Below are positions 60,659 through 64,000 of a stretch of 64,000 nt of DNA, piece by piece. The stretch is taken from assembly GCF_000526215.1 (NCBI RefSeq), contig NZ_JAFQ01000004.1:6510001-6574000 (forward strand). Direction: 5' to 3'. The notes under the pieces were generated by a model. The model was not told where the DNA came from, ran no database searches, and was given only the letters and a program-made list of their open reading frames with translations. Made by a program: the position numbers and the translations under genes. Every line of letters begins with the position of its first letter. The first letter of the stretch is position 1. The stretch is from Nocardia sp. BMG51109. Its GTDB lineage: Bacteria; Actinomycetota; Actinomycetes; Mycobacteriales; Mycobacteriaceae.

Positions 60659-62092
60659 ATGCCCGAAATCCGAACGCAACCGAACCCGGTGTCCCACGGG
60701 CACAACGGTTCCGGACAGCTCAGCCTCAGCACCACAGCTGCCCGCAAGTTGTCGTCGACGACCAAATCCGTGCCGCAGATGCAAGGCATCACGCCCCGCT
60801 GGCTGCTCGAACTTCTGCCGTGGGTCGAGGCGCGAGGTGGCGCGTACCGGGTCAACCGCCGGCTGAACTACACGCTGGGCGACGGACGGCTGGACTTCCT
60901 CGCGACAGGCGGCCGGGTGCAGGTCATCCCGGCCGAGTTGACCGAGCTCCCGCTGTTGCGGCATTTCGGCGACATCGACGTACTGGAGGCGCTGGCCGAC
61001 AGGTTCGTGCAACACGAATACGACCCGGGGGCGGTCCTGGCCGCGGCCGACAGCCAGGCCGATCAACTCGTCCTGCTCGTGCACGGACGTCTCGCCAAAC
61101 TTCGCGAAGGCAAATACGGAGACGAGTCGACCCTGGAAATCATCGCCGACGGCGACTATTTCGGCGCCGAGGCACTGATCGGCACCGACGACACGTGGGG
61201 CTATTCGGTCAAGGCCACCACGGCATGCACGGTCATGGCGTTGCCGAAGACGGCCTTCCAGGAGGTGCTCGACCAATCCGAGGCGCTGCGCGGCCACCTC
61301 GACCAGCACCGGAAAACCGCGGGCAAAGCCCAGAACCTCCACGGCGAGGCGGACGTAGAAATCATTTCCGGTCATCGCGGTGAGCCGCCCCTGTCCGGCA
61401 CTTTCGCCGACTACGAACTCGCGCCCCGCGAACTCGAGCTGAGCATCGCCCAGACCATCCTGCGGGTGCACACGCGCGTCCAGGACCTCTACAACGAGCC
61501 GGTCGACCAGCTCGAGCAACAGCTCCGGTTGACCATCGAGGCAGTGCGCGAGCGCCAGGAATACGAGCTGGTCAACAACAAGGACTTCGGCCTGCTCCAC
61601 AACGCGGACTTCAGCCAGCGCCTCTACACCCGCAGCGGCCCACCCACCCCGCACGATATGGACCAGTTGCTCAACAAGGTCTGGAAGAACCCGGCCTTCA
61701 TCCTCGCGCACCCGGAGGCCATCGCCGCGTTCCGCGACGAGTGCAGCCGGCAGGGCATCGTCCCGGAGACCGTGCACGTCCCCGGCGGTCGGCTCTCCGC
61801 ATGGCGCGGGGTGCCCATGTACCCCTGCTGGAAGATCCCGATCAGCGAACACGGCACCACCTCGATCATGGTGATGCGGACCGGCGAAACCGATCGGGGC
61901 GTCATCGGTCTGCGTAAGACCGGCCTGATCGACGAGTACGAGCCGGGTCTGAGCGTGCGTTTCATGAGCATCGACGAGCGGGCGATCGTCAACTATCTGA
62001 TCACCTGCTACTACTCGTTGGCCGTCCTGGTGCCCGACGCGCTGGCCGTGCTGGAGAACGTTCAGCTCGGGAGCACCGATGATCGCGGCTGA
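60659..62092 (+). CDS. Family 2B encapsulin shell protein with cyclic-nucleotide-binding-like domain
   Basis: Subunit of a protein nanocompartment, 477 aa. The N-terminal arm (LSLSTTAARKLSSTTKSVPQ, ITPRWLLELLPWVEARGGAY, RVNRRLNY) and the C-terminal HK97-type body (LAPRELELSIAQTILRVHTR, RLSAWRGVPMYPCWKIPI, MSIDERAIVNYLITCYYSLA) are characteristic of family 2 shells. An inserted CNBD (about 100-210; LADRFVQHEYDPGAVLAA, GDYFGAEALIG) marks family 2B. The phosphate-binding cassette lacks the usual Pro-Arg, so cAMP binding is uncertain. ATG 60659 has only a weak ribosome site. The gene overlaps the fused cargo enzyme gene by 14 bp. Confidence 0.93.
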   Translation: MPEIRTQPNPVSHGHNGSGQLSLSTTAARKLSSTTKSVPQMQGITPRWLLELLPWVEARGGAYRVNRRLNYTLGDGRLDFLATGGRVQVIPAELTELPLLRHFGDIDVLEALADRFVQHEYDPGAVLAAADSQADQLVLLVHGRLAKLREGKYGDESTLEIIADGDYFGAEALIGTDDTWGYSVKATTACTVMALPKTAFQEVLDQSEALRGHLDQHRKTAGKAQNLHGEADVEIISGHRGEPPLSGTFADYELAPRELELSIAQTILRVHTRVQDLYNEPVDQLEQQLRLTIEAVRERQEYELVNNKDFGLLHNADFSQRLYTRSGPPTPHDMDQLLNKVWKNPAFILAHPEAIAAFRDECSRQGIVPETVHVPGGRLSAWRGVPMYPCWKIPISEHGTTSIMVMRTGETDRGVIGLRKTGLIDEYEPGLSVRFMSIDERAIVNYLITCYYSLAVLVPDALAVLENVQLGSTDDRG

Positions 62093-64000
62093 ACCGGACG
62101 CCGACCCCTTCACCCGCGCGCGCCGGCTGATCACTCCTGGCTTGCGGGCCGCGGCGGACAGGGTGAACTCGGCCACGCGCCAGGTCATCGGGTACCACTT
62201 CGGCTGGTGGGACGAGCAGGGAAATCCCTTGGACGGCAATGGCGGCAAGGCGCTGCGGCCCGTCTTGGCGATGCTCGCGGCGGAAGCGGTCGGCGGCACC
62301 GCCGAGCGGGCGACCAATGCGGCCGTCGCGGTCGAGCTGGCACACAACTTCTCGCTACTGCACGACGACATCATGGACGCCGACCGCACCCGCCGGCACC
62401 GCCCCACCGCGTGGACCGTCTTCGGGGTCCCCGCCGCCATCCTCGCCGGCGACACGTTGACCACACTGGCGACAGAGGCGCTGGTGGCCGACGGCCCACC
62501 GCTCGCCGTAGCAGGCGTGTCCCGGCTCGACGAGGCGATTCTGCGGCTCAACGACGGCCAGGCCGCGGATCTCGCCTTCGAAGGCCGCGCCGATGTGCCC
62601 CTGGACGAATGCGTGACGATGGCGCGCGACAAGACCAGCGCGTTGTTCGCCGCCGCTTGCGAGCTCGGCGCCATGTCCGCCGGCGCGTCACCGCAACGGG
62701 TCTGGCAGCTGCGACAATTCGGTGAGCACCTCGGCCTGGTCTTCCAGCTGGTCGACGACCTCCAGGGCATTTGGGGCGATCCGGCCGCGACCGGCAAGCC
62801 GGTGATGGCCGACCTGCGTGCCCGTAAGAAGTCGCTGCCGGTGGTGGCCGCGTTCAACGGCGGCAACGGCGCCGCGGCACGGCTTGCGGAGCTGTATCTC
62901 GGTGACGAGCCTCTGGACGACGACGCGCTCCGGACCTGCGCCGACCTGATCGCGGAGGCGGGCGCGCAGACCTGGGCGCACCAGGAGATACAGCGTCGGC
63001 TGGATTCTGCCCTGGCCTGCCTGCACGCCGCCAACCCGGAGCCCGCGGCCGCAGCAGCACTGGCGACGTTGGCCCGGCAACTGAGCACGGGACCGAGGAC
63101 ATCGCTTGCCGCGCAGCCGGAGTCGTACCGCATGCCGACCTTCGAGCTGCGCCCGGCCCGGCTGAGCCCGCACCTCGACTCGGCTCGCGCACATGCCCTC
63201 ACGTGGGCCAGGGACATGGGCCTGTTCGCGCCGCAGGGCGGCATCCCACCGTGGACCGAGGAGCAGTTCCGGAAGCAGGACTACCCGCTGCTGCTGTGCC
63301 ATATGTTCCCGGACGTTCCCGCCGACAAGGTCGATACGCTCGTCGACTGGTGCACGTGGTTGTTCTACCTCGACGACTTCTTCGCCGAGACCTGCCGGCG
63401 CACCGGCGATGCGGCACCGACGAAGGCCCACCGGGCCAGGCTGCGGCAGTTCATGCCGCTCGACCCGACGCAGGACGTGCCGGTGGCGGCCAGTCCTACC
63501 GAACGCTGTCTCACCGACCTGTGGCTGCGCACCGTACCGGCTATGTCGCGGGAATGGCGGTGCCGCACACGCGAACTCATCGAGGAATGTCTCGGCGGCA
63601 ATCTCCGGGAACTGCGCAACGCCACGAGCGGACACCCCACCGACCCGATCGAGTACCTGGAGCTGAAGCGCAGGACCAACGCCGGTCCGCTGGCCGCGAG
63701 CCTGGCCGAATACGGCCGGGCGGCGGAGCTGCCCGGCGCGGTCGCGGACGCTCCGCCGATCCGTTCGCTGATCGAGTGCCTCGGCGACGCGAGTCTTCTG
63801 GTCAACGACCTCTACTCGTACCCGGCGGAGGTGGCGAGCGGCGCCGAGCCCGCCAACATGGTGCATGTGCTGCGGAAGTTCCTCGGCTGCGATCTCCAGC
63901 GGGCGGTGGACACGACGGCCGACCTGGTCCGCTCCCGCCTGGACCGGTTCGAGCACGTCGCCGGCGTCGAGGTGCCGACGATGCTCGAGGAGTACGGCCT
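62079..64000 (+). CDS. Polyprenyl diphosphate synthase-terpene cyclase fusion, putative encapsulin cargo (3' end outside window)
   Basis: One uninterrupted frame of at least 640 codons. Residues 1-345 are an isoprenyl diphosphate synthase like the family 2 encapsulin prenyltransferase cargo: GYHFGWWDEQGN, NGGKALRPVLA, first Asp-rich motif FSLLHDDIMDADRTRRHRPT and second QLVDDLQGIWGD. After a short linker (about 338-355) comes a class I terpene cyclase with LDDFFAE (metal motif) and NDLYSYPAE (NSE motif). It would make a prenyl diphosphate and cyclise it. No long disordered N-terminal targeting region is present. ATG 62079 overlaps the shell stop by 14 bp. The product is unknown. Confidence 0.9.
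   Translation, partial: MIAAEPDADPFTRARRLITPGLRAAADRVNSATRQVIGYHFGWWDEQGNPLDGNGGKALRPVLAMLAAEAVGGTAERATNAAVAVELAHNFSLLHDDIMDADRTRRHRPTAWTVFGVPAAILAGDTLTTLATEALVADGPPLAVAGVSRLDEAILRLNDGQAADLAFEGRADVPLDECVTMARDKTSALFAAACELGAMSAGASPQRVWQLRQFGEHLGLVFQLVDDLQGIWGDPAATGKPVMADLRARKKSLPVVAAFNGGNGAAARLAELYLGDEPLDDDALRTCADLIAEAGAQTWAHQEIQRRLDSALACLHAANPEPAAAAALATLARQLSTGPRTSLAAQPESYRMPTFELRPARLSPHLDSARAHALTWARDMGLFAPQGGIPPWTEEQFRKQDYPLLLCHMFPDVPADKVDTLVDWCTWLFYLDDFFAETCRRTGDAAPTKAHRARLRQFMPLDPTQDVPVAASPTERCLTDLWLRTVPAMSREWRCRTRELIEECLGGNLRELRNATSGHPTDPIEYLELKRRTNAGPLAASLAEYGRAAELPGAVADAPPIRSLIECLGDASLLVNDLYSYPAEVASGAEPANMVHVLRKFLGCDLQRAVDTTADLVRSRLDRFEHVAGVEVPTMLEEYG

What the first reader, a model, noticed from the sequence alone, without database searches (positions are those of the whole stretch)
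60659..64000. Encapsulin 2B shell coupled to a single-chain prenyl synthase-terpene cyclase
Seen: the shell gene ends at 62092 and the next frame starts at 62079; from there no stop occurs to 64000, and the frame encodes both DDIMD and LVDDLQ prenyl-synthase motifs and LDDFFAE plus NDLYSYPAE cyclase motifs. Known: family 2B encapsulins are found with separate polyprenyl transferases and terpene cyclases. Inference: here the two cargo enzymes are fused, so a sealed shell could contain a complete two-step terpene pathway with fixed 1:1 stoichiometry and direct substrate transfer. The domain order (synthase first) is the reverse of the fungal cyclase-prenyltransferase chimeras.
Basis: partly seen in the sequence, partly recalled or inferred. 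Interest (0 to 1): 0.95.

Follow-up and report, generated by a model that had tools for sequence, protein, structure and literature searches.

The report
Shell with fused two-step terpene enzyme
Directly behind a gene for a virus-like protein shell, this Nocardia genome carries one gene that joins domains of two terpene-making enzyme families in a single protein, whose end bears a tag that likely sends it inside the shell, so the shell would hold a complete two-step terpene pathway.

Summary
The frame at 62079 runs past the window to a stop at window-equivalent 64205: 708 aa, no internal stop. It joins an all-trans polyprenyl synthase (residues ~10-335) to a class I terpene cyclase (~358-673) by a ~22-residue linker. 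The gene before it is a family 2B encapsulin shell. Thirty database relatives (60-81% identical), from Nocardia and Pseudonocardiaceae where named, have the same fusion.

They hold GPTGLGTSTAR, the motif proposed in 2021 as a targeting sequence of encapsulin-associated cyclases. It is in 31 of 31 fusions aligned, own included. The cyclase half resembles only the first half of geosmin synthase. The fusions form one clade; eight fusion operons have one shell gene, whereas 22 of 23 loci with separate synthase and cyclase have two. Three Nocardia genomes carry a related synthase that lacks the cyclase but keeps the tag, and its product-length residue differs.

Encapsulation, activities, product and channelling are untested. 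Geosmin synthases far from shell genes often carry the motif too, and ten shell-adjacent split cyclases lack it. New variant of a known kind; ten paper searches listed no report of it.

The parts
60659..62092 (+). Family 2B encapsulin shell gene (477 aa; HK97-type domain PF19307 at 220-471, cNMP-binding-like insertion PF00027 at 119-206)
62069..62073 (+). GGGAG, a possible ribosome-binding site for the fusion gene inside the shell gene's end, 5 bases before the ATG
   Evidence: sequence read directly; function inferred
62079..62092 (+). 14-base overlap of shell stop and fusion start, which suggests translational coupling
   Evidence: coupling inferred
62079..64000 (+). Fusion gene, 640 of 708 codons inside the window; stop at window-equivalent 64205 (G000:C4:6574205)
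62106..63083 (+). All-trans polyprenyl synthase domain (residues ~10-335); DDIMD at 62364-62378, second aspartate motif at 62754-62759
63084..63149 (+). Linker, residues ~336-357; model confidence below 50 at 340-346
63150..64000 (+). Class I terpene cyclase domain (residues ~358-673, ends at window-equivalent ~64097); DDFFAE at 63372-63389, NSE motif at 63804-63830

Best explanation
Shell and fusion form a two-gene module: a family 2B encapsulin shell gene overlaps a gene for one protein that joins a polyprenyl synthase domain to a geosmin-synthase-type cyclase domain and ends in GPTGLGTSTAR, a motif that likely binds the shell's inner face and loads the enzyme. Shown by sequence: the single reading frame, both sets of catalytic motifs, the conserved tag in a variable, predicted-disordered tail, the fusions as one clade, and one shell gene per fusion operon in the eight loci seen. 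Predicted: the synthase half condenses IPP with an allylic diphosphate to a C15 (possibly C20) chain, and the cyclase half turns it into a sesquiterpene of the germacradienol/germacrene kind. Geosmin itself is unlikely from this chain, because the second geosmin-synthase domain is absent. Inferred and untested: joining the enzymes lets one tag load both, so a second shell type or a second loading signal is not needed. Transfer of the intermediate would be by proximity inside a crowded shell, as proposed for the fungal fusion PaFS, rather than through a tunnel.
For: Frame and stop. Shell identity. AlphaFold model of the 708 aa (mean pLDDT 81.8): two folded domains, with low-confidence segments (below 50) at 1-7, 340-346 and 674-708. 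Foldseek: synthase half to 3nf2 (TM 0.90 by target), cyclase half to the N-terminal domain of S. coelicolor geosmin synthase 5dz2 (TM 0.92). Invariant in the 31 aligned fusions, own included: D96 D97, D226 D227, D432 D433, N576 D577 S580 E584, R531, R672 Y673. Tag in 31 of 31; mean column identity tag 0.94, tail before it 0.39, linker 0.55, cyclase 0.71, synthase 0.87. Motif pattern in 7 of 4247 other mechanical ORFs of 150 aa or more at these loci. Tag in 11 of 11 synthase chains of the fusion clade at loci (8 fused, 3 without cyclase) and 0 of 78 unfused ones. The three cyclase-less Nocardia proteins keep the tag. In P0016 the tail before the tag is about 115 residues longer than usual, and the tag still stands at the end. 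Compared with nine other loci of the clade, shell and fusion are shared, and of the flanking ORFs only a weak ABC-ATPase match (30-36%) to one locus. dN/dS to three Nocardia relatives: synthase 0.14-0.16, cyclase 0.28-0.59.
Against: No experiment here or in print that I found. The tag is not a perfect marker: geosmin synthases with no shell gene nearby also carry it (7 of 9 in Nocardia, 4 of 5 in Pseudonocardiaceae genomes), and 10 of 10 split or single-domain geosmin-synthase-like chains beside shells in G537, G540, G541, G725 (Crossiella/Kutzneria where named) and G864 lack the pattern, as does the shell-adjacent cyclase of L077. Among 74 listed synthase-like proteins 2 match the loose pattern, at other places. 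The cyclase half evolves faster than the synthase half, tail and linker are near neutral (dN/dS 0.9-1.5 and 0.3-1.0 on 22-35 codons), the Glu of DDFFAE is not invariant, and one lineage lacks the cyclase. One shell per fusion operon is one evolutionary event, not eight; one locus with separate synthase and cyclase also has a single shell (L024). The relative placement of the two domains is not predicted (pTM 0.52).
Confidence: 0.66

Rival explanations
1. The fusion is a bifunctional cytosolic enzyme that is merely co-transcribed with the shell; the tag is an inherited linker of geosmin synthases without a loading role.
For: The same motif stands in geosmin synthases that have no shell gene nearby, and ten shell-adjacent split cyclases lack it.
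Against: The tag is better conserved (0.94) than the mean of either domain, in an otherwise free tail, and is kept where the cyclase is gone. The 39 of 148 Nocardia genomes with a geosmin-synthase match each hold at least one 2B shell, against 108 of 148 overall, so loading in trans is possible (compared by eye).
Confidence: 0.19
2. The cyclase half no longer matters much: the compartment's job is to hold a prenyl synthase, and the cyclase is being lost.
For: Cyclase dN/dS is about 2-4 times that of the synthase; three Nocardia genomes carry the synthase with the tag and no cyclase.
Against: Nine cyclase-site residues (D432 D433, R531, N576 D577 S580 E584, R672 Y673) are invariant in 31 of 31 fusions; cyclase dN/dS is below 1 in all three comparisons. 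In the cyclase-less lineage the synthase's length-setting residue also differs, which points to a new product rather than plain decay.
Confidence: 0.1
3. The synthase half makes C20 and the cyclase is a diterpene synthase.
For: The synthase scores with GGPP-synthase models (NF045549, 309 bits, below its cut-off of 475) and structures; its first aspartate motif has no two-residue insertion and an aromatic residue five places before it, as in archaeal GGPP synthases (rule recalled, from no call).
Against: The cyclase's nearest relatives, by sequence and fold, are geosmin-synthase first domains, and geosmin is made from farnesyl diphosphate (PMC8346489, passage).
Confidence: 0.25
4. Sequencing or assembly error, or a missed stop, joins two ordinary genes.
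For: None found.
Against: 30 relatives and seven places in other genomes read through the junction; dN/dS below 1 in both domains.
Confidence: 0.01

Closest known systems
Family 2B encapsulin operons with separate terpene cyclase and polyprenyl transferase (Giessen group: PMC8346489; PMC12407261)
   Same: Same shell family; same two enzyme families; same GPTGLGTSAAR-type motif; cyclase and synthase genes beside shell genes
   Different: There two enzyme genes and often two shell genes (Enc1-cyclase-Enc2-synthase); here one enzyme gene and one shell gene. Of PMC8346489 I saw 12 of 15 places with my words; the fusions in them concern the shell protein, none a synthase-cyclase. 'Fused' does not occur in PMC12407261
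Germacradienol/geosmin synthase (5dz2, 5dw7; NF041168)
   Same: Cyclase half matches the first domain (268 bits; TM 0.92) and the motif stands at the same place after that domain
   Different: Second (geosmin-forming) domain absent; a prenyl synthase is put in front
Fungal chimeric terpene synthases (PTTS, e.g. PaFS; PMC8190136, PMC8307374, passages)
   Same: Prenyl synthase and class I cyclase in one chain
   Different: PaFS has the cyclase first, the synthase last and a ~70-residue linker; here synthase first, ~22-residue linker, a shell gene beside it, and bacterial next of kin. PMC8307374 states that such chimeras occur only in fungi
2-methylisoborneol-synthase-like cyclase with a 2B shell (a second 2B locus of this same genome, C4:5.32 Mb)
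   Same: 2B shell with a terpene cyclase that bears GPTGFGT
   Different: Motif N-terminal of the cyclase domain; separate methyltransferase-like gene; no synthase domain (labels by eye, not by family search)

Membership tests
Family 2B encapsulin shell | HK97-type shell domain of family 2 | tested here: met
   PF19307 412 bits
Family 2B encapsulin shell | cNMP-binding-like domain inserted in the shell protein | tested here: met
   PF00027 at 119-206, before the SrpI-like part at 220-471
Family 2B encapsulin shell | encap_f2b model above its curated cut-off | tested here: met
   706 bits against 400; 588 bits to 9bje_A
Family 2B encapsulin shell | Assembles to icosahedral shells and holds cargo | not testable with these tools
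   needs expression and cryo-EM
Family 2 encapsulin cargo polyprenyl transferase (NF041169) | Above curated cut-off | tested here: not met
   430 bits against 450
Family 2 encapsulin cargo terpene cyclase (NF041168, geosmin-synthase-like) | Above curated cut-off, whole two-domain model | tested here: not met
   352 bits against 1200; only profile positions 2-355 of 735
All-trans polyprenyl diphosphate synthase | Both aspartate-rich motifs | tested here: met
   D96 D97 and D226 D227 invariant in 31 of 31
Class I terpene cyclase | DD motif, NSE motif, diphosphate Arg, RY pair | tested here: met
   D432 D433; N576 D577 S580 E584; R531; R672 Y673 invariant in 31 of 31; roles of the residues recalled and from alignment to 5dz2
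Geosmin synthase | Second, geosmin-forming domain | tested here: not met
   protein ends 35 residues after the first-type domain
Fungal PTTS chimera | Cyclase N-terminal, synthase C-terminal | tested here: not met
   order reversed; fungal order from PMC8190136
Encapsulin cargo by GPTGLGTSAAR-type motif | Motif in a disordered part | tested here: met
   residues 692-703; model confidence below 50 at 674-708
Encapsulin cargo by GPTGLGTSAAR-type motif | Motif goes with an adjacent shell gene and is absent elsewhere | tested here: inconclusive
   true for synthases (11 of 11 against 0 of 78); for geosmin synthases also present without adjacent shell, and absent in 10 shell-adjacent split chains
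Encapsulin cargo by GPTGLGTSAAR-type motif | Motif needed for loading | not testable with these tools
   needs tag-removal experiment

The most novel reading that the evidence does not exclude
GPTGxGT is a portable passport into 2B shells, and evolution has edited the cargo around it. A prenyl synthase was joined to the tagged first half of a geosmin synthase, which put a two-step pathway under one tag in a one-shell compartment; later one Nocardia lineage cut out the cyclase but kept the tag and opened the synthase's length gate, turning the terpene-ring factory into a long-chain prenyl factory in the same shell.
Probability: 0.4. Interest if true: 0.85.

Novelty: new variant of a known kind. 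Interest (0 to 1): 0.72.

Why it matters
Single-chain prenyl synthase-terpene cyclases were described in 2021 as occurring only in fungi (PMC8307374); this is a bacterial family with the opposite order, tied to a protein shell. It offers a two-gene nanoreactor with both steps under one tag. The natural set of fused, unfused and cyclase-less relatives makes two open questions testable: what loads family 2B shells, and why many 2B operons have two shell proteins.

Tried and rejected
Rejected: frameshift or assembly artefact (relatives); cyclase from the second geosmin-synthase domain (the tree puts it beside the first domains); membership in NCBIfam cargo models (both below cut-off); a larger conserved gene cluster (flanking genes not shared but for a weak ABC-ATPase match to L019).

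Weaker than hoped: whether the cyclase-less form is a loss. In the careful synthase tree it is nested (92/92), but the test does not reject the other order (p-AU 0.25; 0.32 on 16 rows); the shell tree rejects it (p-AU 0.010), shell plus synthase does not (0.14). I treat loss as likely, not shown. Tag as marker of shell adjacency: tried and only partly true. The model of the cyclase-less protein was poor (mean pLDDT 62.2, six sequences); I use it only for its unstructured tail (340-386). A long N-terminal extension on unfused synthases, as stated in PMC8346489, could not be judged, because start codons were taken mechanically.

Nothing in print: ten searches in a library that misses most subscription journals and bioRxiv; a paper on the shell-enclosed 2-methylisoborneol pathway that I recall was not listed, and I rely on nothing from it. 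A 2023 review (PMC10563020, eight passages) names fungal chimeras only in what I saw.

Numbers to read with care: one search scored 7998 candidates and listed 120 of 383 hits. rest on 79 loci kept of 559 confirmed relatives plus loci fetched from genomes; L027 was dropped as the same contig as L020. The careful synthase tree used 17 of 78 unfused rows; the cyclase tree 22 of 32 fusions, 12 geosmin synthases and 23 ORFs chosen. 'Near' and 'no shell nearby' for Nocardia were assigned by eye, whose shell list is cut; 30 of the 40 listed geosmin-synthase places were read: 13 near (13 with motif), 9 far (7), 8 unsure (8). In one search three of the split cyclase loci (L158, L163, L164) seem to have returned the neighbour's ORF (same lengths); their own chains were read. 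Of the database fusions, two partial ones (P0032, P0033) and P0034 (other order) are not in the 31; L141 (G864) is a further fusion, in the trees but not in the 31.
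Full report
1. What is there. The window is G000:C4:6510001-6574000. The organism is taken as a Nocardia: the genus code of the window's genome also covers G008, whose 24,270-base contig C53 carries the same match as the 24,270-base Nocardia alni contig L027. The shell gene 60659-62092 encodes 477 aa; the next ATG, 62079, lies 14 bases inside its end, after GGGAG. The second frame runs out of the window and stops at window-equivalent 64205: 708 aa.

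2. Shell. PF19307 plus an inserted PF00027 domain, encap_f2b 706 bits against a cut-off of 400, and the nearest solved sequences are 9bje, 9bhu and 9bix.

3. Fusion. PF00348 at 54-288 and PF19086 at 423-622. AlphaFold gives two well-folded helical domains and low-confidence segments at 1-7, 340-346 and 674-708 (mean pLDDT 81.8, pTM 0.52, so the relative placement of the domains is not predicted). Foldseek: 3nf2, a S. coelicolor polyprenyl synthetase (TM 0.90, 47% identity), and 5dz2, the first domain of geosmin synthase (TM 0.92, 43%). Key residues of both active sites are invariant in 31 of 31 aligned fusions, own included; the Glu of DDFFAE is not. NCBIfam's two cargo models match but miss their cut-offs; the cyclase model is matched over positions 2-355 of 735 only. 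So the cyclase half is like the first half of a geosmin synthase. A quick tree of 83 domains puts 22 fusions in one clade (99) beside the first domains (98) and away from 21 of 26 second domains, which stand apart (100). Product prediction, C15 to a germacradienol-like sesquiterpene, is inference from that kinship.

4. A family, not a freak. The database search listed 120 of 383 hits; among them 30 proteins besides the window's own are fusions over the whole or nearly the whole length (60-81% identical in A2), and two more are partial. Named ones are in Nocardia, Kutzneria, Allokutzneria and Crossiella. In whole genomes: of 150 in the genus, 8 match at E <= 1e-100, of which 4 are full fusions (own included), 3 a synthase without cyclase, 1 a separate pair; at E <= 1e-140, 4 of 390 in the family of the Kutzneria genome G538 and 1 of 397 (own) in an even draw from the order. 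In the quick tree of 113 synthase domains all 32 fusions and the 3 cyclase-less forms are one clade (97), apart from 78 unfused ones; 100/97 in a careful tree with 17 of the 78.

5. The tag. Residues 692-703 (window-equivalent 64152-64187) read GPTGLGTSTARQ. Giessen and colleagues proposed GPTGLGTSAAR, between the domains and at the C-terminus of geosmin-synthase-like cyclases, as a possible targeting sequence (PMC8346489, passages). In the fusions it stands at the same place after the first cyclase domain as in geosmin synthases, now near the C-terminus. It is in 31 of 31 fusions with 0.94 mean column identity, against 0.39 for the tail before it. In P0016 that tail is about 115 residues longer and the tag is still at the end. 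The pattern occurs in 7 of 4247 other mechanical ORFs and in 0 of 78 unfused synthases (56 at loci with a shell hit, 22 without).

6. Natural cut-outs. Nocardia L022, L023 and L025 have shell plus a 384-386 aa synthase, about 72% identical to this one, with no cyclase hit at the locus; the ~50-residue tail holds RPNGFGTATARQ or RPSGFGTATARR, the commonest fusion variant of the tag but for its first residues and, in two, the last. Their shells nest among fusion shells (98 in the large quick tree; outside placement rejected, p-AU 0.010), though the synthase alone and both together do not settle it (0.32, 0.14). In these three the residue five places before the first aspartate motif is Ser; it is Phe or Tyr in 32 of 32 fusions and 78 of 78 unfused synthases. 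By the recalled chain-length rule for these enzymes (from no call) that opens the pocket to longer products. The three are one clade, so this is one event. Lentzea shows the opposite edit: in six loci the two-domain cyclase is in two genes, and in five of them (L044, L062, L068, L070, L086; not L065) each half has its own copy of the motif.

7. Shell number. At eight fusion loci the operon has one shell gene (L026 has two more in a divergent neighbour operon). Of 23 loci with separate synthase and cyclase, 22 have two and one has one. Two-component shells have been suggested to allow two loading routes (PMC12407261, passages). One tag for both enzymes would make the second shell dispensable. 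This fits, but the fusion is one event, so it is one data point.

8. Self-contained. Compared with nine other loci of the clade, shell and fusion are shared. Among the other ORFs of 120 aa or more in the 20 kb around this locus I saw only frames that lie over the two genes and a weak ABC-ATPase match (30-36%) to one ORF of L019.

9. Against. Geosmin synthases without a shell gene nearby also have the motif (7 of 9 in Nocardia, 4 of 5 in Pseudonocardiaceae genomes), and 10 of 10 split or single-domain chains beside shells in G537, G540, G541, G725 and G864 lack the pattern. The first may be loaded in trans: the 39 Nocardia genomes with a geosmin-synthase match each have a 2B shell, against 108 of 148 in all (compared by eye). 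The second means other loading routes exist, or that the pattern is too narrow. The cyclase half changes faster than the synthase half (dN/dS 0.28-0.59 against 0.14-0.16), and tail plus tag together are near neutral (0.9-1.5 on 32-35 codons).

10. Known or new. Known: 2B shells, separate synthase and cyclase cargo, the motif, operon orders. Not listed by my ten searches (named in Tried and rejected): a single-chain cargo, or any bacterial prenyl synthase-cyclase chimera; a 2021 paper calls such chimeras fungal only (PMC8307374, Significance text seen in listing and passages). The fusion is the reverse order of PaFS (PMC8190136, passages), where channelling is thought to be by proximity of many cyclases around the synthase core. 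I therefore file it as a new variant of a known kind.

Noticed in passing
G000:C4:6588190-6588413 (L010:8191-8414), about 14 kb after the fusion: A 224-base copy of the middle of the cyclase (window 63391-63614), 222 of 224 identical, sits between unrelated genes before a radical-SAM-like gene (that label by eye). It looks like a recent partial duplication.
   Followed up: partly
G000:C4:5324623-5325972 (L117) and 7374839-7376173 (L118): Two more 2B shells in the same genome: one beside a 2-methylisoborneol-synthase-like cyclase with GPTGFGT and a methyltransferase-like gene, one beside a cysteine-desulfurase-like gene (labels by eye). Three shell types in one cell raise the question how cargo is sorted.
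   Followed up: partly
P0034 (977 aa) and P0081 (505 aa): Cyclase domains followed by a prenyl synthase: a second kind of fusion with the reverse order (cyclase first), as in fungi. Context not seen; no tag pattern in P0034.
   Followed up: no
L022, L023, L025 (same genus): Cyclase-less synthases that keep the tag and have Ser instead of Phe/Tyr five places before the first aspartate motif.
   Followed up: yes
L026:1-12157 (Crossiella sp. S99.2): A fusion operon and a two-shell, split-cyclase operon stand back to back.
   Followed up: no
L050:9266-10423 and L076:9194-10351 (Crossiella): A third, distant cyclase-like protein in the operon carries GPSGLGTSAAR near its N-terminus while the neighbouring geosmin-synthase halves show no motif.
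   Followed up: no
P0066, P0074, P0078, P0079 and P0060: Other joined forms of related synthases in databases: synthase with an amine-oxidase domain (PF01593), and one with a shell domain match (PF19307).
   Followed up: no
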